This document shows, one piece after another, positions 18,287-40,580 of a stretch of DNA of 41,210 nt (position 1 is the stretch's first letter; each line of letters begins with the position of its first letter). The position numbers and the translations under genes are program-made. Source of the stretch: Candidatus Scybalocola faecavium (GTDB lineage Bacteria; Bacillota; Clostridia; Lachnospirales; Lachnospiraceae); assembly GCA_018713145.1 (NCBI GenBank), contig DVFP01000017.1:1-41210 (forward strand), written 5' to 3'. Under the pieces are notes generated by a model, which did no database searches, was not told where the DNA came from, and saw nothing but the letters and a program-made list of their open reading frames with translations.

Positions 18287-18648
18287 AATTTCACTTTATT
18301 TAAATGCAGTGACAAGGAGGAGTACATAAAAGGACGTTTCCTCAGAGAGAAGATGGCTGGTGAAAATCTTTGCAGCGCTTTTATGGAAGTAGCCTTCGAG
18401 CAGTAAAACTGAACCGCAGTGGCGGGGTGTTTTGTGGTATATATTTACTGTAATTTTTAAATTACCGCTTTAAAAATCCCGGCTGCCTATTAAGTTTTAA
18501 CGTATCCCCACGTTACAGGGGCCCGATATTCGTATGATCCGGTATCCGGATATATATTCGTATTGGCAGAGTGCAGAGCTTACGTTCTGAATTTAGGTGG
18601 TACCACGGATGAATTTTCGCCCTAAGCAATTATGCTTAGGGCTTTTTT
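18287..18648 (+). promoter_or_regulatory. T-box leader controlling ilvB-ilvN, probable valine (GUA) specifier
   Basis: The leader senses uncharged tRNA and opens transcription when the amino acid is scarce. Stem I pairs CATAAAAG (18325-18332) with CTTTTATG (18378-18385). The conserved AGAGAG (18344-18349) and GGCTGGTG apical segment lie between. Beside this stem the specifier loop shows GGAGTA on the 5' side and GAA-GTA-G on the 3' side, so the specifier is GTA (18389-18391), valine. AAGG and CCTT close the loop below. The T-box core GGTGGTACC starts at 18596, and its TGGT fits an ACCA tRNA end. The terminator is a perfect 10-bp stem (18619-18628 with 18633-18642) followed by TTTTTT. The specifier assignment is from manual folding. 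Confidence 0.92.
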
Positions 18649-18730: not shown

Positions 18731-20452
18731 ATGAAACAAATTACAGGAAACAAATTACTGGTAAAAGCCTTGAAGGAAGAAGGCGTGGAAGTTCTTTTCG
18801 GCTACCCTGGAGCGGCCACCATTGATTTAAGTGATGAGCTGTATCGGCAGGATTCGATCAAGATCATACTGCCAAGACATGAGCAGGCCCTTGTCCATGA
18901 GGCGGATGCCTATGCCAGAACTACAGGCAAAGTGGGGGTATGCCTTGTGACCAGCGGACCTGGAGCAACCAATGTCGTTACCGGACTTGCCACAGCCAAC
19001 TATGACAGTGTGCCTCTGGTATGCTTTACCGGCCAGGTATCACGGTATCTTATTGGGAATGATGCATTCCAGGAAGTAGATATTGTCGGCATTACAAGAA
19101 ATATTACAAAATACAGCGTTACTGTGCGCCACCGGGAAGATCTGGGACGTATTGTTAAAGACGCGTTTTATATTGCAAGGACCGGACGGCCCGGACCGGT
19201 CCTTATCGATCTTCCTAAAGATGTTATGGCAGAGCTTGGAAGCCCCGAGTATCCCAAAACCGTAAACATTCGGGGATACAAGCCAAATACCAGCGTCCAT
19301 GTAGGACAGCTGAAAAAAGCGATTAAAATGCTTCATTCTGCCAAACGCCCTCTCCTGCTGGCCGGCGGCGGCGTAAATATCGCCCATGCCCAGGAAATCT
19401 TTACAAAAGTTGCAGAAAAAACCCAGGTGCCTGTTGTCACAACTATCATGGGCAGAGGGGCTATTTCCACGGATCATCCTCTTTTTGTCGGCGACCTTGG
19501 CATGCATGGCGCTTATGGAGCCAATATGGCTGTAAACAACTGTGATCTTCTGTTTTCCATTGGCACACGTTTCAATGACCGGATCACAGGAAAGCTTCAT
19601 GAATTTGCGCCTCACGCTCAGATCGTTCATATTGATATTGATACAGCCTCTATTTCAAGGAATATCCATGTTCATGTGCCTATTGTAGCTGACGCAAAAG
19701 AGGCATTGACAAAAATGGATGAATATGTTCAGCCTTGTGACACGAAACAGTGGCGTGAACAGATCCATGAATGGTGCCAGGAACACCCTCTGACGATGCG
19801 CAGCAAGCCAAATACCTTAAGTCCCCTGGACATTATTAATGAAATAAATGCACAGTTTGACGAAGCTATTATTGTTACTGATGTAGGCCAGCATCAAATG
19901 CTCGTGACTCAATATGCCCAGATCACCCCTAAGAAACAGCTGGTAATGTCCGGCGGCCTGGGAACTATGGGCTATGGCCTTCCAGGCGGTATCGGCGCAA
20001 AAATCGGCAATCCGGATAAGCCGGTCATTGTTGTATCCGGTGACGGCGGTATGCAGATGAACATTCAGGAAATGGCTACAGCGGTTTTAGAGGAACTTCC
20101 CATTATTATCTGTATTTTTAATAATGAATATCTTGGAATGGTCCGCCAGTGGCAGAAACTTTTCTACGGCAAGCGCTATGCCATGACCAACTTAAGAGCC
20201 GGCGCCCTCTCCCGCCGCACTAATGGGGAAGAATATCCGGAGTATACGCCGGACTTTATCAAGCTTGCCCAAAGCTACGGAGCAAAGGGTATGCAGGTGA
20301 CTAAAAAAGAAGAGGTTGCCGCTGCATTTGAGGAAGCTCGGAAAAATACCAAGACACCAACGATCATTGAATTTATCATTAGTCCGGAAGAAATGGTCTA
20401 TCCGATGATCAAGCCTGGCGGAACTTTGGAAGATATGATCATGGATTGCTGA
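18731..20452 (+). CDS. ilvB: Acetolactate synthase, large catalytic subunit
   Basis: The enzyme condenses pyruvate with pyruvate or 2-oxobutyrate, the first committed step of valine, leucine and isoleucine synthesis. The 573-residue protein has the three ThDP-enzyme domains. The catalytic Glu51 lies in 'PRHEQALVHEADAYAR'. The central FAD-binding domain contains 'RFNDRITGKL'. The C-terminal ThDP motif runs from 'GDGGMQMNIQE' to 'IFNNEYLGMVRQWQ'. The ATG at 18731 follows AAAGGAGG. It is transcribed from the T-box-controlled promoter and followed at 75 bases by the regulatory subunit. Biosynthetic AHAS, rather than catabolic AlsS, is indicated by the T-box and the ACT-domain partner. Confidence 0.97.
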   Translation: MKQITGNKLLVKALKEEGVEVLFGYPGAATIDLSDELYRQDSIKIILPRHEQALVHEADAYARTTGKVGVCLVTSGPGATNVVTGLATANYDSVPLVCFTGQVSRYLIGNDAFQEVDIVGITRNITKYSVTVRHREDLGRIVKDAFYIARTGRPGPVLIDLPKDVMAELGSPEYPKTVNIRGYKPNTSVHVGQLKKAIKMLHSAKRPLLLAGGGVNIAHAQEIFTKVAEKTQVPVVTTIMGRGAISTDHPLFVGDLGMHGAYGANMAVNNCDLLFSIGTRFNDRITGKLHEFAPHAQIVHIDIDTASISRNIHVHVPIVADAKEALTKMDEYVQPCDTKQWREQIHEWCQEHPLTMRSKPNTLSPLDIINEINAQFDEAIIVTDVGQHQMLVTQYAQITPKKQLVMSGGLGTMGYGLPGGIGAKIGNPDKPVIVVSGDGGMQMNIQEMATAVLEELPIIICIFNNEYLGMVRQWQKLFYGKRYAMTNLRAGALSRRTNGEEYPEYTPDFIKLAQSYGAKGMQVTKKEEVAAAFEEARKNTKTPTIIEFIISPEEMVYPMIKPGGTLEDMIMDC

Positions 20453-35649: not shown

Positions 35650-35681
35650 GGCATAAGCTTTTTTCACTATCAGCTTATGCC
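35650..35681. other. 9-bp hairpin between the AAA ATPase gene and the AGCS gene
   Basis: GGCATAAGC (35650-35658) pairs perfectly with GCTTATGCC (35673-35681) across 14 bases. There is no T-run outside the stem on the minus strand, so it is not a standard terminator for the AAA gene; it could be a processing site or a factor-dependent end. Confidence 0.5.
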
Positions 35682-35692
35682 AAACATGTCTG

Positions 35693-37150
35693 TTAAATGC
35701 CTAAAAAGTCCGCATATCTGCTCATATGCTCAATGTCCTCAAGAATCTTATCTCTGCCGGAACTAAACAAAAGGCCTTCATTATACTTGTAATACCGCTC
35801 ACATCCGTTGGCGGAAATATAGGCCATCGCCGGACGGCTTGTATTCAGCTCTGTAATAAAGATAACCATTTCCTGGCTTTCTCCAAAAGCTTCCTCCATA
35901 AAATCAAAAGCAGTCTCCAGATGCTTTCCGGCCTTATTTGTCAGCGCTTCCAAATCTGTCACTTCATTTTCAAACAAACCTTTAAGGGTATTAAAATCCC
36001 CGCCCGCCTTAAGACGATCTTTGTAGGTATACAGGGTCCGGATCAGCCGGTGGTCCGCCTTTTCGTCTAGTGGAAGGATGGCTTCTTCCAGGGCTTCGGC
36101 ACCTGCCTGAGGCGGCATTTCCCGAATAGATAATAAAATATCATAAAGCTGTTCCACAAAATGATTTTTCTCTGTCTGGGCCTTAAAATCCTGGTTCAGA
36201 CAGCCCATTAAAAGACCGATCAGGCTTAGTTTTTCATCAAAACGGGCCTCACGTATCCGTGTCACTGTTTCCGGACGGATCTTTCCGTTCATGATCTCAT
36301 CCACATGGTAGTCATCTTTATACTGGTTGTAAAGATCATAATAATTGGCAAAATCCCTGGCGATCTTCGGATGCTGTACATATTGGCCGATCATAGTTTC
36401 TGTCACCGGTTCTCCTAAAAGCTCCTGGGCATAGATCATATAAGACAGATCTTCCCACCCTCTGGCAGTGACAAAACGTTTCCCGGAAGCAGTTGTCTCC
36501 ACCTGATAGAAATTTTCCTTTTTGATTTCCAGATAGGTCATAATCGACGGGTGGACGCCCCGCTCATAGGCGTAACTTTTCCACACGGAAAAATCTTCCG
36601 TAATCGTCATTTTCCGTACTCGGTCCAAGGTCACAATATCAAATTCCTTCACGGATTTATTATATTCCGGAGGATTTCCCGCAGCTACGATGATCCACCC
36701 ATCCGGCACTTTATGATTTCCAAATGTTTTTTTCTGAAGAAACTGGAGCATAGTGGGCGCAAGAGTTTCTGAAACACAGTTGATCTCGTCAAGGAACAAA
36801 ATCCCCCGGTCTTTTTTTGTGGATGCCATATAATCATACACGGCCCCAATGATCTCGCTCATGGTATATTCTGTGGCGCTGTACTCTTTTCCGCCGTAGG
36901 TATGGGAAACGATCATTGGCAGGCCGATGGCGCTTTGCCGGGTATGATGGGTCATAGTATAGGCCACCAGGCCAATCTGGCACTCTGCGGCAATCTGCTC
37001 CATAATAGCGGTTTTCCCGATTCCCGGGGGACCGATGAGCAAAATAGGCCGCTGGGCGATCACCGGGATCCTGTAATCCCCGTTTTCATCAGTCATTAAA
37101 TAGGCTTCAATGGCATTTTTTATTTCCTGCTTTGCCTGTAATATGTTCAT
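35693..37150 (-). CDS. MoxR-like AAA+ ATPase
   Basis: The 485-residue protein is an AAA_5/MoxR-type ATPase. Walker A is 'GPPGIGKT' (40-47), Walker B 'ILFLDE' (117-122), and sensor 1 N159 lies in 'VAAGNPPEYN'. A candidate arginine finger is in 'TLDRVRKM' (R177), and a region after residue 200 ('GKRFVTARGWEDLSYMIYAQ') corresponds to the lid. The C-terminal 170 residues are helical and have no recognisable domain. Such ATPases act as chaperones that insert metals or remodel complexes with a VWA partner. Its start overlaps the stop of the VWA gene by four bases, and it is the last gene of the degV-LRR-VWA-AAA operon. Clients are unknown. Confidence 0.9.
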   Translation of the reverse strand: MNILQAKQEIKNAIEAYLMTDENGDYRIPVIAQRPILLIGPPGIGKTAIMEQIAAECQIGLVAYTMTHHTRQSAIGLPMIVSHTYGGKEYSATEYTMSEIIGAVYDYMASTKKDRGILFLDEINCVSETLAPTMLQFLQKKTFGNHKVPDGWIIVAAGNPPEYNKSVKEFDIVTLDRVRKMTITEDFSVWKSYAYERGVHPSIMTYLEIKKENFYQVETTASGKRFVTARGWEDLSYMIYAQELLGEPVTETMIGQYVQHPKIARDFANYYDLYNQYKDDYHVDEIMNGKIRPETVTRIREARFDEKLSLIGLLMGCLNQDFKAQTEKNHFVEQLYDILLSIREMPPQAGAEALEEAILPLDEKADHRLIRTLYTYKDRLKAGGDFNTLKGLFENEVTDLEALTNKAGKHLETAFDFMEEAFGESQEMVIFITELNTSRPAMAYISANGCERYYKYNEGLLFSSGRDKILEDIEHMSRYADFLGI

Positions 37151-38466
37151 GATTTATTTCCTTCCATTTCCAGATCCTCCCGTGTCAGTACAAGTTTAAT
37201 AGCCCAGGGAGGAACCGTTCTGTCTGAATATTCTTCGCCTATAAATACAAAGGCAGTTTCAAAAGGCGGTTTACTTTTGGGAAATTCCCCGTAACCGTCA
37301 GTAAAGTAGATCAGTCCCTTTAAATGGGACAGTTTTCCTTCTTCCATAAGCTTCCTGGTATAATCAAATACCGGGCGAAAATCGGTACCGCCAAAGCCCT
37401 GTACCTGAAAATCCTCCATATATTGATCAAAATCCTCAGTTCCGGTAATCAAAGTGTCTGAGGAAATGCCTGCATCACACTGAAGGATATGGACATGGAT
37501 TTTTTTAAAAAAACTTTCCCGCAAAGAAAGCATGGAAAAAGTCTCATTGAGAAATTCCCGCACCATTTCCGGAGGACAGGACTGGGATGTGTCAATGGCA
37601 ATGACAAATTCATCAATCTTTTTCACATCCTTATATTCCAAAGGCTCAATCAGAGGCATATTTTTATAATGATCCATGCCATAGGTATAAAAAATATAAT
37701 CAAAGCTGTCATCATCCGGCACGATCTCCTCGCCCCACACAGCAAAACGTTTTAAAAAGTCCCGGTAGTCATACCGTTCCCGGTGTTCTAGCTTTAATCT
37801 GGCTAAAAGATCCCCTGCTGCATCTCCATAGTCCTTAGACAAGGTTTCCATGTTGGTCTGCATTTTCTCGCTGATCTGCTGCCATGCCTGGTAATTTTCC
37901 TCCTGTCGGGGATCCTGCCGGTTTTCGTCTTCATGATCCCAAAAACTGTGATCATCCACCTTAAAGGCCCGGCACATCCGGTCAAACTCCCGCTGTGAAA
38001 TAAAAGTATTTTCCAGGTAATGATAAATGCTCTGGGCATTTAATACTTTCATTTCCTTTTTCAGCCGGCTGTAAACGTATTCCCGGTAATCACTGACTGT
38101 GACAAAAACAGCAGCCGCGTCCATGCTGTCCACAATTGATTCTGCTGCAATATCACAGGCCAGGTTCCAATTTTCTTTATTTTTTCCTCTGCCGGAAAAA
38201 TCATGGCAGAACAGATTGTGGATGAGCATATGCATATATGCCCGGTTCACATATACCCTGTCCACAGTATAGGTATCCATAAGATACCTGGGATTGTATA
38301 AAATAGACTGTCCGTCTGTGCCAATCGTCTTTGTAGACAGATTCATCACATAATCCAGCCGAGCCAGAGCAATGTCCAAAAACCTCATGGAGATATACAG
38401 TTCATTCCGGGATAAACTTAAGATCTTTACTCCAATACGGCTTAACTGTTCCTTTATATCATTCAT
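37147..38466 (-). CDS. VWA-like protein with N-terminal DUF2201 putative metallopeptidase domain
   Basis: The 439-residue protein has two parts. The N-terminal DUF2201 region (about 20-240) holds a zinc-protease-like H79-x3-H83-x4-H88 in 'YMHMLIHNLFCH' and 'NLACDIAAESIVD'. The C-terminal VWA-like domain (about 285-435) has an intact MIDAS start D292-x-S-x-S in 'VIAIDTSQSCPPE', and 'YFTDGYGEFP' supplies a later metal-site Asp. An earlier start would add 40 residues overlapping the LRR gene, but AGGAGG lies seven bases before the ATG at 38466. Its stop overlaps the AAA ATPase start, the classic MoxR-VWA pairing. Whether the HxxxH site is catalytic is not known. Confidence 0.9.
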   Translation of the reverse strand: MNDIKEQLSRIGVKILSLSRNELYISMRFLDIALARLDYVMNLSTKTIGTDGQSILYNPRYLMDTYTVDRVYVNRAYMHMLIHNLFCHDFSGRGKNKENWNLACDIAAESIVDSMDAAAVFVTVSDYREYVYSRLKKEMKVLNAQSIYHYLENTFISQREFDRMCRAFKVDDHSFWDHEDENRQDPRQEENYQAWQQISEKMQTNMETLSKDYGDAAGDLLARLKLEHRERYDYRDFLKRFAVWGEEIVPDDDSFDYIFYTYGMDHYKNMPLIEPLEYKDVKKIDEFVIAIDTSQSCPPEMVREFLNETFSMLSLRESFFKKIHVHILQCDAGISSDTLITGTEDFDQYMEDFQVQGFGGTDFRPVFDYTRKLMEEGKLSHLKGLIYFTDGYGEFPKSKPPFETAFVFIGEEYSDRTVPPWAIKLVLTREDLEMEGNKS

Positions 38467-38480
38467 GGAAAAACCTCCTG

Positions 38481-39434
38481 TCACAAGGTAAAACGGGAAC
38501 GGATCCCTTCCTGCCCTTTTGGACGGGAGATTCCCTGATAATCCATGAGCTGTGCAGTCATGGATGCCTTGCCGTACCGGCTGCACAGATCCAGGGCAGT
38601 TTCCACATCCTTTGGTGTAAGCAGACGGTGGTTAAGCATATAATCAAACAGCGGTTGAATATCATCGGTTCCGCTGCCTCGGATGAGGGTTCCCAGGATT
38701 CCTGTCATATGGTTTTTTATATATGTTTCATATCTTTCCCTGCTGTCTAAAGTCAGCTTATATGGCCAGCACAGCCGGTATGCGGCGATCTTTAGCAAGG
38801 TAGAATCCTCATCCTCTACCTGGGCCAATGAGAAAACAGAATCATACTTATCATAGTCAATACCTGTATCTTTAATACTGATCCGGTAAGAATCCCCGGA
38901 ACCATAGGTTTCCCAGTTAAACTGACGGGCTTCGATCTCAGGGACATATTCGTACTGATAGTCTGTAAACACCAGTCGGGAAACATCCTGGACATTTCCC
39001 GACTCATCCATATACCGGATAGTTACATCTACTTCCTGAAATTCATCCAGCAAAATAGAATTCAGACAGTTTTTCTTCCCCTGCACAATATCTATGGTGA
39101 TTTTATTTAGCTCCAGACAGTTTTTAAAGGCCCCGTATCCGATAGAGGAAATATTCTTCCCAAAGGTGATCTCATGAAGGCCCATACAATTATAAAAGGC
39201 GTAATCTCCCACAGATACCAGGCTGTCAGGAAAAACAAGCTTTTGAAGCTGGCGGCACTCGGCAAAGGCGTAATCCTCTATTGCTGTCACTGTTTTTGGC
39301 AGGATCACCTGCTTTAATCCCTTACAGCCGTAAAATGCCCGCTCACCGATCACAGTTACCGGCTGTCCCTCAATAGTTTCAGGAATTGCGTAAATTTCCG
39401 AAATTTTCTCCGGATCCATAGCCTTAAAGATCAT
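38481..39434 (-). CDS. Leucine-rich repeat (BspA/LRR_5-type) protein with unknown C-terminal domain
   Basis: The 317-residue protein has about five BspA-type repeats of 23 residues in the first 125 positions ('IGERAFYGCKGLKQVILP', 'IEDYAFAECRQLQKLVFP', 'VGDYAFYNCMGLHEITF', 'IGYGAFKNCLELNKITI'). The C-terminal 190 residues show no family I know, apart from a helical end (about 235-305) resembling ankyrin/HEAT-like pairs ('LFDYMLNHRLLTPKDVETAL'). There is no signal peptide, cell-wall anchor or membrane segment, so unlike surface BspA proteins it appears cytoplasmic. Its start overlaps the degV stop (ATGA) and it ends 14 bases before the VWA gene. An adaptor or client-recognition role for the AAA-VWA pair is inferred. 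Confidence 0.87.
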   Translation of the reverse strand: MIFKAMDPEKISEIYAIPETIEGQPVTVIGERAFYGCKGLKQVILPKTVTAIEDYAFAECRQLQKLVFPDSLVSVGDYAFYNCMGLHEITFGKNISSIGYGAFKNCLELNKITIDIVQGKKNCLNSILLDEFQEVDVTIRYMDESGNVQDVSRLVFTDYQYEYVPEIEARQFNWETYGSGDSYRISIKDTGIDYDKYDSVFSLAQVEDEDSTLLKIAAYRLCWPYKLTLDSRERYETYIKNHMTGILGTLIRGSGTDDIQPLFDYMLNHRLLTPKDVETALDLCSRYGKASMTAQLMDYQGISRPKGQEGIRSRFTL

Positions 39435-40300
39435 CGATGATCACCTAAAAACAGCACGCCGATGGCTCCCGGGCCGGAATGAGCACCAATACTTGGGCCT
39501 ACCGGCTGGATCAGGATATTATCATAACCAAATTCCTTTTTAACCAGTTCTGCCAGATATTTCGCATCTTCCTCACAGTCACCGTGGACAATACCGATAA
39601 AAATCTGCTTATCCTTAAAGCTTCCCAGGCGGTCCGCCATATTTTTCACAAGAAGATTTAAAGATTTTTTTCGGCCTCTGGTCTTATCCAATGCCACCAG
39701 TTTTCCTTCATCATCTACATATAAAATCGGCTTAATATTTGCTAATGTTCCTACAATAGCCGTTGTTTTTGATAAACGTCCGCCCCGGTATAAATGATTC
39801 AGATCATCTACGGTAAACTGAACACATAAATGGGGAACAAGGGACTGGACATACTGGGTCGTTTCTTCCAGAGACTTTCCCTGAGCCCGCATATCTACAG
39901 CGGCCTTGATCAGCATTCCCTCGGCCAGGGACACGCTTAAAGTATCTATCACATTTATTTTCATTTCAGGAAACGCTTCCATCACTTCCCTGGCTCCGGA
40001 TACGATGTTCCCATATCCGCCGCTTAAAGCGGATGAAAAGCTGATGTGAAGAATATCTTTCCCTGTCTTTGCAATTTCTGTAAATTTATCCAGGATCACT
40101 GCCGGATTGCTGGCCATAGTCGCAGCCTTTTTTCTGGCCCGCATAGCATCATAAAATTCTTTGATGGAAAGTTCTTTTCCATCGCCATAAACATCATCAT
40201 CCACACTGTAATAATGGGGAATGACACAAATCTGATTTTCCTGCAGAAATTCCTCCGGCATATCGGAATTACTTTCTGTAGATATAATAAAATCTCTCAT
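39431..40300 (-). CDS. DegV family fatty-acid-binding protein
   Basis: The 289-residue protein belongs to the DegV family (PF02645), which binds fatty acids and in Firmicutes delivers them to the FakA kinase. It has the family start 'FIISTESNSDMPEEFLQEN', a ligand-loop segment 'DILHISFSSALSGGYGNIVS', 'HLYRGGRLSKTTAIVGTLAN' with 'IKPILYVDDEGKL', and the C-terminal 'IGAHSGPGAIGVLFLG'. AGGAGAG precedes the ATG at 40300. No fakA (DAK2-domain) gene is adjacent; instead it leads the LRR-VWA-AAA operon and overlaps LRR by four bases. A TATAAT on the minus strand (40396-40391) is a possible -10 but lacks a good -35. Confidence 0.93.
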   Translation of the reverse strand: MRDFIISTESNSDMPEEFLQENQICVIPHYYSVDDDVYGDGKELSIKEFYDAMRARKKAATMASNPAVILDKFTEIAKTGKDILHISFSSALSGGYGNIVSGAREVMEAFPEMKINVIDTLSVSLAEGMLIKAAVDMRAQGKSLEETTQYVQSLVPHLCVQFTVDDLNHLYRGGRLSKTTAIVGTLANIKPILYVDDEGKLVALDKTRGRKKSLNLLVKNMADRLGSFKDKQIFIGIVHGDCEEDAKYLAELVKKEFGYDNILIQPVGPSIGAHSGPGAIGVLFLGDHR

Positions 40301-40552: not shown

Positions 40553-40580
40553 GTAACAGTTCATCCCGCTGAACTGTTAC
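40553..40580. repeat. Perfect 11-bp palindromic repeat GTAACAGTTCA/TGAACTGTTAC
   Basis: Arms 40553-40563 and 40570-40580 pair perfectly around a six-base loop (TCCCGC). The arm is identical to 10969-10979. There is no T-run, so it is not a terminator. It looks like a dispersed intergenic repeat. Confidence 0.65.

What the first reader, a model, noticed from the sequence alone, without database searches (positions are those of the whole stretch)
35693..40300. Four-gene coupled operon degV-LRR-VWA/DUF2201-MoxR ATPase
Seen: four genes on one strand with ATGA overlaps at degV/LRR and VWA/AAA and a 14-base gap between. The LRR protein lacks secretion signals. The VWA protein has both an intact MIDAS (D-x-S-x-S) and an HxxxH site, and the ATPase has intact Walker motifs. 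Known: MoxR-VWA pairs (e.g. RavA-ViaA) are chaperone machines. Inference: the cytoplasmic LRR protein is an adaptor or substrate receptor for an ATP-driven remodelling machine, perhaps linked to membrane lipid state through fatty-acid-binding DegV. I know of no described system with this composition.
Basis: partly seen in the sequence, partly recalled or inferred. Interest (0 to 1): 0.7.

Follow-up and report, generated by a model that had tools for sequence, protein, structure and literature searches.

The report
LRR receptor for MoxR-VWA remodelling machine
Many gut Clostridia carry a three-gene set in which a leucine-rich-repeat protein is predicted to feed target proteins into a likely ATP-driven remodelling machine, through a small helical domain that in some species is fused directly to a part of that machine.

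Summary
The four genes and their overlaps are as described. degV is not part of the system: it is essentially a genus-level neighbour, and the genome holds six degV genes. The other three are. In 250 Lachnospiraceae genomes (249 genera) all 125 with the LRR protein's C-terminal domain also have the VWA protein; none of the 107 without VWA has that domain. It lies beside or inside the VWA-AAA pair in 117 of 141 matches. The constant part is not the LRR but a ~95-residue helical domain (CORE): it occurs with LRRs, alone, with CobW or DUF6273 domains, or fused in front of VWA. Unfused CORE proteins end in a hydrophobic F-x-L-type tail (49 of 58, against 28 of 575 other ORFs). The VWA protein's metallopeptidase domain keeps three histidines but lacks the catalytic glutamate (0 of 54); distant relatives keep it (16 of 18). 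Most likely this is an ATP-driven protein-remodelling machine with a plug-in client receptor (inferred). It is a new variant of the known MoxR-vWA ternary systems; client and function are unknown. The adaptor idea is supported by architecture; the membrane-lipid idea is not.

The parts
38481..39434 (-). third component: BspA-type LRR protein, 317 aa, no predicted signal or membrane segment
   Evidence: Pfam LRR_5 2.1e-27; hydropathy; AlphaFold2 model pLDDT 92.4, pTM 0.88; the only LRR_5 match in the held genome, which is about 81% complete
39075..39434 (-). LRR solenoid, residues 1-120 (variable module: absent or replaced in some relatives)
38481..39035 (-). conserved C-terminal region, residues 134-317: four-strand beta part (135-177), helices (180-303); the helical CORE domain is about residue 215 to the end
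   Evidence: alignment A2, model, CORE profile; co-occurs with VWA in 125 of 125 genomes
38484..38495 (-). free C-terminal tail R-F-T-L, low pLDDT; family motif [FLYMI]-x-[LFI]-COOH
   Evidence: 49 of 58 unfused CORE proteins against 28 of 575 other ORFs and 1 of 11 fused
37147..38466 (-). VWA protein: N-terminal degenerate DUF2201_N metallopeptidase domain plus VWA domain
   Evidence: Pfam DUF2201_N 1.9e-8 and DUF2201 1.3e-11; alignment A4 of 54; model pLDDT 85.2, pTM 0.61
38203..38232 (-). H79-x3-H83-x4-H88; Glu of HExxH replaced by Met80
   Evidence: each His 54/54, Glu 0/54; distant relatives keep HE in 16 of 18
37579..37593 (-). MIDAS D-T-S-Q-S (D292-S296)
   Evidence: D292, S294, S296, T361 and D390 54/54
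35693..37150 (-). AAA+ ATPase of the AAA_5 (dynein-related) group, 485 aa
   Evidence: Pfam AAA_5 8.1e-10; motifs 26/26
37010..37033 (-). Walker A GPPGIGKT
39431..40300 (-). degV: co-oriented neighbour, judged not part of the module
   Evidence: beside the set in the genus and in L091 only; 6 matches in the genome

Best explanation
The LRR, VWA and AAA+ genes form a conserved three-gene module, without degV, that likely encodes an ATP-driven protein-remodelling machine in which the LRR protein would be the client receptor. Shown: the three genes co-occur and sit together across Lachnospiraceae; the constant part of the receptor gene is a helical CORE domain, which in some species is fused in front of the VWA protein; unfused CORE proteins mostly keep an F-x-L-type C-terminus; the VWA protein keeps its MIDAS but has lost the catalytic Glu of its metallopeptidase domain. 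Inferred: the AAA+ protein forms a hexamer; the VWA protein docks on it; the CORE domain and its tail dock on the VWA protein's N-terminal domain or the ring, so that the former peptidase domain now serves as a binding scaffold; the LRR, or another swapped module, selects the client; the MIDAS grips client or receptor through a metal ion; ATP hydrolysis then remodels or releases it. Client unknown.
For: Co-occurrence: C-terminal domain (CTD) 125, VWA 143, both 125, neither 107 of 250 genomes, Fisher p = 7e-52. Of the 18 VWA-only genomes I examined 11: CORE in 8 (E 1.7e-11 to 0.004), an LRR partner cut by the contig end in 2, none in 1. Placement of 141 CTD matches: 87 directly upstream of VWA, 26 at 1.9-2.7 kb downstream of VWA (the place behind the ATPase gene), 4 in the same ORF as VWA, 6 farther off, 18 with no listed VWA on that contig; 105 of the 125 genomes have at least one adjacent or fused pair. 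CORE fused to VWA in 11 of 71 loci. CORE without LRR in seven loci, L048 and L143-L148; CobW-LRR-CORE in L161; CORE with DUF6273 in L164 and L167. Tail motif 49/58 against 28/575. MIDAS 54/54, HxxxHxxxxH 54/54, Glu 0/54. The only LRR_5 match in the held genome is here. Fold: the VWA model matches, among many VWA domains, the MIDAS of human MDN1 solved with NLE1-UBL (8ql1, E 9.2e-5, rank 4), an AAA-MIDAS-adaptor pair like that of Rea1 (PMC6624252, passages). In NorQD the MIDAS is needed for the target but not for binding NorQ (PMC9976466, passages). A group of distant relatives with HExxH has a different repeat protein (DUF4116 in the 3 tested) directly upstream of the ATPase gene in 8 of the 8 loci fetched.
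Against: No physical contact, ATPase activity or client is shown; the tool predicts single chains only. The CTD profile was built from proteins that neighbour VWA, which favours finding VWA-linked ones. LRRs are not essential to the module: 7 loci have CORE alone and none of the 11 fused ORFs shows an LRR by pattern. Within the genus the LRR part does not evolve faster than the CTD (dN 0.17/0.37/0.35 against 0.20/0.32/0.41), so there is no sign of a fast-evolving recogniser; only the whole gene is faster than VWA and AAA, and dS is saturated. L099 (G137) and L054 have a pair without a recognisable third component. No homology between CORE and the DUF4116 proteins was detected (hhalign probability 1%). 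Some fusions may be broken or misassembled genes (L141 and L154 carry partial AAA parts; L139 carries an M20 peptidase). Of 11 fused proteins, 10 keep HxxxHxxxxH and L156 has lost it. The VWA model has a modest pTM of 0.61.
Confidence: 0.6

Rival explanations
1. A conflict (anti-phage) system of the MoxR-vWA ternary kind, in which the LRR protein senses an invader and the VWA-AAA pair sets a threshold for a response.
For: Three-component MoxR-vWA systems with exchangeable third components are proposed as conflict systems (PMC7159879, PMC8195603). Distribution between genera is patchy, 143 of 250 genomes. The bpMoxR model nearly reaches its cut-off (26.5 against 27).
Against: No effector domain: above cut-off Pfam finds only DUF2201_N and DUF2201 in the VWA protein. 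In PADLOC the VWA and LRR proteins match nothing at E up to 1 and the ATPase only AAA-type stretches (best IetA 9.8e-6, residues 6-62); 2 of 76 neighbour genes match at E up to 1e-10. The order degV-LRR-VWA-AAA-symporter is the same in 4 of 4 fetched genomes of the genus, Hpt gene apart. No close relative lies on a plasmid: 19 records match, all below 36% identity, the 6 that cover 80% or more at 22-26%.
Confidence: 0.17
2. A cofactor- or metal-insertion chaperone (NorQD/CoxDE-like) in which the LRR protein recognises one metalloprotein and the HxxxHxxxxH site holds or passes on a metal.
For: Several MoxR-VWA pairs insert metals (PMC9976466 passages; PMC13036017 abstract start in the listing; PMC7159879 section 8). 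Three His and Asp171 are invariant without the catalytic Glu. One third component is fused to a CobW/HypB/UreG GTPase domain (L161).
Against: Only one CobW fusion was seen; among 76 neighbour genes no metalloenzyme family is in more than 2 (Radical_SAM in 2; the first 25 of 155 families are shown); metal binding was not tested.
Confidence: 0.15
3. One reading: a degV-linked machine tied to membrane lipid state.
For: degV overlaps the LRR start codon and lies next to or one gene from LRR in 4 of 4 fetched genomes of the genus; one more degV sits behind the LRR gene in L091, another family. RavA-ViaA binds lipids (PMC9489729, abstract).
Against: Outside the genus only L091 among the immediate neighbours sampled; six degV matches in the genome make chance adjacency easy; the FakB1 model is missed (140 bits, cut-off 350).
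Confidence: 0.03
4. The LRR/CORE protein is a substrate or regulator (for example an inhibitor of the ATPase) rather than a receptor for other clients.
For: The F-x-L tail has low confidence in the model (pLDDT about 49-60) and could be an engagement tag; CORE is in some loci fused to VWA.
Against: Swapping of recognition-type modules (LRR, DUF6273, CobW) on a constant CORE is more natural for a receptor.
Confidence: 0.15

Closest known systems
MoxR-vWA ternary systems (VMAP, iSTAND, beta-propeller, iSTAND2, TERNS3; Kaur 2020 PMC7159879, passages and section 8; Burroughs and Aravind 2021 PMC8195603, passages)
   Same: MoxR-type AAA+ plus vWA, mostly with intact MIDAS, plus a system-specific third component encoded beside them
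   Different: third component is LRR_5 plus CORE; no effector domain on the vWA protein; vWA carries a degenerate DUF2201_N domain; found in Clostridia, not mainly in multicellular bacteria
MoxR plus N-terminal-metallopeptidase vWA pairs of group 2.2 jumbo phages (PMC7824862, passage) and plain DUF2201 pairs of other Bacillota
   Same: metallopeptidase-vWA domain layout (the phage proteins of that paper were not compared residue by residue)
   Different: distant bacterial relatives keep HExxH (16 of 18); the LRR-linked clade has lost the Glu (0 of 54)
Midasin/Rea1 with the UBL-domain factors Rsa4 and Ytm1 (PMC6624252, passages)
   Same: AAA+ ring plus a MIDAS that grips a partner domain; fold match 8ql1; midasin is also the best PDB sequence match of the ATPase (6or5, 3.5e-7, residues 20-62)
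   Different: midasin is one giant chain; no LRR or CORE is mentioned in the passages read
RavA-ViaA and NorQ-NorD (PMC10585395 listing; PMC9489729 abstract; PMC9976466 passages)
   Same: two-gene AAA+/VWA chaperone machines
   Different: no LRR/CORE subunit described in the parts read; whether the VWA N-domains are related was not tested
Type III-A CoCoNuT regions (PMC11090510, passages)
   Same: VWA genes near an AAA+ ATPase that carries a leucine-rich-repeat element
   Different: there the ATPase is CDC48-like and the LRR is fused to it; the setting is a type IV restriction system

Membership tests
MoxR AAA+/VWA chaperone pair (broad sense) | AAA+ with intact Walker A/B, sensor and Arg finger | tested here: met
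   26 of 26; residue roles recalled
MoxR AAA+/VWA chaperone pair (broad sense) | adjacent VWA protein with intact MIDAS | tested here: met
   54 of 54; gene pairs
MoxR AAA+/VWA chaperone pair (broad sense) | helix-2 insert that defines the MoxR clade (PMC7159879) | not tested
   no ATPase structure was predicted
Pfam AAA_3 (classical MoxR, recalled) | score over the curated cut-off | tested here: not met
   13.6 against 27; AAA_5 is met, 39.3 against 22
MoxR-vWA ternary conflict systems | a third component consistently encoded with the pair | tested here: met
   125/125 co-occurrence; 64 of 71 loci with a third component adjacent, nearby or fused (32 of the 71 were picked as unusual)
MoxR-vWA ternary conflict systems | VMAP, iSTAND, iSTAND2 or TERNS3 module | tested here: inconclusive
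   only LRR_5 is above cut-off in the LRR protein; Pfam may lack models for some of these modules
MoxR-vWA ternary conflict systems | effector domain at the C-terminus of vWA or beside it | tested here: not met
   the VWA match runs to residue 427 of 439; PADLOC 2 of 76 neighbours
beta-propeller MoxR (PF20030) | score over the cut-off | tested here: not met
   26.5 against 27, a near miss
DUF2201 predicted metallopeptidase | DUF2201_N and DUF2201 over cut-off | tested here: met
   34.7/23.2 and 45.2/26.4
DUF2201 predicted metallopeptidase | HExxH catalytic Glu | tested here: not met
   0 of 54
BspA-type surface LRR proteins | LRR_5 repeats | tested here: met
   fold matches
BspA-type surface LRR proteins | secretion signal or membrane anchor | tested here: not met
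   68 of 70 CORE proteins below a hydropathy limit of 1.6, the window's at 0.8; a crude test
RavA-ViaA | match to RavA or ViaA family models | tested here: inconclusive
   not among the NCBIfam families listed (best 25 of 34 for the ATPase, 1 for VWA)

The most novel reading that the evidence does not exclude
A receptor-swapping AAA+ machine: a dead metallopeptidase has become the scaffold of a MoxR-VWA motor, and a small helical CORE domain with an F-x-L C-terminal tail plugs interchangeable recognition modules (LRR, CobW-LRR, DUF6273, or none) into it, much as exchangeable substrate receptors plug into ubiquitin ligases.
Probability: 0.4. Interest if true: 0.75.

Novelty: new variant of a known kind. 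Interest (0 to 1): 0.6.

Why it matters
How MoxR-VWA machines choose their clients is poorly understood. A module whose likely receptor is a separate, modular subunit with a short dock and tail makes that question testable in a named gut-type bacterium (Catenibacillus scindens DSM 106146 carries it). The loss of the catalytic Glu throughout the LRR-linked clade gives an evolutionary case of a peptidase likely turned into a scaffold.

Tried and rejected
degV as a component: rejected. HxxxH as an active peptidase site: rejected for lack of Glu. Functional guess from neighbours: 76 immediate neighbour genes share no common function (the most frequent family, response regulators, is in 5); one of the 76, L164's, later proved to be a CORE gene. 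Homology of CORE with the DUF4116 third components and with the 544/548-aa proteins of the paralogous locus L055: not supported (hhalign probability 1-2%; CORE E 0.62 for L055). Fold of the HxxxH domain: likewise barely tested. The single genome-contig scan was made with one protein and found only 2 loci; an alignment would have reached further. dN/dS: dS saturated.

Caveats on counts. The CTD profile was built from VWA-adjacent proteins. The 71-locus table includes 32 of the 40 stretches fetched because they looked unusual, so the less biased numbers are those. In one search the VWA row list was cut by the tool, so 18 'no listed VWA on contig' is an upper bound. Seven of the 18 VWA-only genomes were not examined (G352, G377, G401, G450, G457, G470, G533). 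Exceptions: L046 and L101 stop at a contig end; L055 is a distant paralogue; L095 has a split VWA; in L096 the CORE gene lies beyond the stretch (seen in L171); L054 and L099 have none. Fused VWA proteins were left out of the 54-row alignment: 10 of 11 keep HxxxHxxxxH, none with Glu, and L156 has lost it. HExxH in distant relatives: 18 read, 16 with Glu; L106 and L188 lack it; in L189 no ORF was recognised. Rows dropped: L171 as a duplicate of L096; the seven distant loci L102-L108; seven loci (L149, L152, L158, L174, L175, L176, L178) in which the script saw no VWA gene. The ORFs of my scripts are mechanical, not curated genes.
Full report
What is there. Pfam names DegV, LRR_5, DUF2201_N plus DUF2201, and AAA_5. 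The LRR protein has no predicted membrane or signal segment. It is the only LRR_5 match in the held genome, whereas degV has six matches; the genome is about 81% complete.

Which genes belong together. Of 61 genomes (own included) 22 hold the VWA protein; in most readable loci an LRR protein with a conserved C-terminal region lies directly before VWA or directly after the ATPase gene. I built profiles of the VWA protein (A1) and of the LRR protein's C-terminal region (A2, from VWA-adjacent proteins) and searched the same 250 Lachnospiraceae genomes in 249 genera. C-terminal region: 125 genomes. VWA: 143. Both: 125; region without VWA: 0; VWA without region: 18; neither: 107 (Fisher p 7e-52). 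Of 141 matches of the region, 87 are directly upstream of VWA on the same strand, 26 are 1.9-2.7 kb downstream of it, the place behind the ATPase gene, 4 are in the same ORF as VWA, 6 farther off, and 18 have no listed VWA on their contig; 105 of the 125 genomes have at least one adjacent or fused pair. Of the 18 VWA-only genomes I examined 11: CORE was found in 8, an LRR partner cut by a contig end in 2, nothing in one (G137, L099). DegV is next to or one gene from the set in the four fetched genomes of the genus, an Hpt-domain gene standing between in two, and in one locus of another family (L091).

The constant part is a helical domain, not the LRR. The LRR model is confident (pLDDT 92.4, pTM 0.88): LRRs to about residue 120, four strands at 135-177, helices at 180-303, and a low-confidence tail. 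Relatives split this protein. In L048 and L143-L148 a 102-165 aa protein with only the helical part stands before VWA. In 11 of 71 loci it is the N-terminus of the VWA ORF itself, although L141 and L154 look damaged and L139 carries an M20 peptidase in front. In L161 a CobW-type GTPase domain precedes LRR and CORE; L164 and L167 carry DUF6273; L092 has two CORE genes around VWA. A profile of this CORE (95 positions, 58 sequences) found eight further proteins at E up to 0.004, all of them partners or VWA genes of this module, among 948 ORFs. Unfused CORE proteins end in [FLYMI]-x-[LFI]-COOH in 49 of 58 cases, against 28 of 575 other ORFs and 1 of 11 fused proteins.

The ATPase. The catalytic motifs hold in 26 of 26. 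It belongs to Pfam AAA_5, not AAA_3.

Other third components. Eight fetched loci of distant relatives with HExxH (L105, L179-L184, L191) have a repeat protein directly upstream of the ATPase gene; Pfam calls the three tested DUF4116 (L105 1.7e-13; L179 2.8e-6 and L191 9.4e-13) and the other five align to them. Profile comparison does not link it to CORE. Three other loci (L102-L104) have a SNF2-type helicase there. A repeat-protein third subunit may therefore have been recruited more than once (inference).

Spread. Matches with E below 1e-70 fall mainly in the window's family, with a few in other families of the class and phylum. Plasmids: 19 records, all below 36% identity. Phage records: 31, of which seven short unannotated 'Bacteriophage sp.' faecal records match at 39-48% and may be bacterial contigs (inference); the best of the others listed are at 20-24%. 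PADLOC matches 2 of 76 neighbour genes at E up to 1e-10.

Mechanism. Proposed as the common scheme of MoxR-VWA machines: the VWA domain captures a peptide of a protein and ATP hydrolysis by the ring remodels it (PMC7159879 section 8); in NorQD the MIDAS is needed for the target, not for NorQ (PMC9976466 passages). From this and the anatomy I infer a machine whose client receptor is the LRR/CORE protein, docked through CORE and its tail on the former peptidase domain or on the ring. Docking, hexamer, client and cell role are untested.

Literature. Searches for MoxR with DUF2201, with vWA and leucine-rich repeat, with vWA and metallopeptidase, with LRR and Clostridia, with von Willebrand and Lachnospiraceae, and for COG3864 and DUF2201 alone gave no paper that the listings or passages seen show to describe this set. 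Of the two papers holding MoxR, vWA and leucine-rich repeat, one uses LRR for other proteins; the other describes VWA genes near a CDC48-like ATPase fused to an LRR element in CoCoNuT regions, a different arrangement. The four DUF2201 papers and PMC12067865 were seen as listings only. The library holds open-licence papers only.

Verdict. A real, conserved, apparently undescribed three-gene module of a known kind, with degV removed from it. Interest 0.6.

Noticed in passing
L055 (G000:C31:97481-98755 and neighbours): The same genome has a second, distant VWA-AAA pair (29% identical VWA) without LRR, followed by a 178-aa protein and tandem 544- and 548-aa proteins of no Pfam family; the end of the 544-aa protein weakly resembles CORE (E 0.62).
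   Followed up: partly
L105, L179-L184, L191: Distant MoxR/DUF2201 pairs with HExxH have a DUF4116-type repeat protein with a conserved C-terminus directly upstream of the ATPase gene, in all 8 loci fetched of this type.
   Followed up: partly
L102, L103, L104: Other DUF2201 pairs with HExxH stand directly behind SNF2-type helicases of 1189-1308 aa.
   Followed up: no
L139:170-3676: One ORF joins an M20 peptidase, CORE and VWA; it may be real or an assembly error.
   Followed up: no
L031:4502-4978 and L033:4619-5011: An Hpt-domain protein gene (Pfam 1.6e-6 and 1.1e-6) lies between degV and LRR in two congeners and is absent at that place in the window and in L032.
   Followed up: partly
window 40553-40580: A perfect 11-base inverted repeat (6-base loop) upstream of degV, with a terminator-like tail on the plus strand; possible operator or terminator.
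   Followed up: no
window 35650-35681: A perfect 10-base inverted repeat in the gap between the ATPase gene and the alanine symporter gene.
   Followed up: no
window 18300-18627: T-box leader (121 bits) before a thiamine-pyrophosphate enzyme gene at 18731-20452.
   Followed up: no
phage records MT837836.1, MT839739.1, MT835935.1 and four others: Short unannotated 'Bacteriophage sp.' faecal records carry close relatives (39-48%) of the VWA protein and may be bacterial contigs filed as phage.
   Followed up: no
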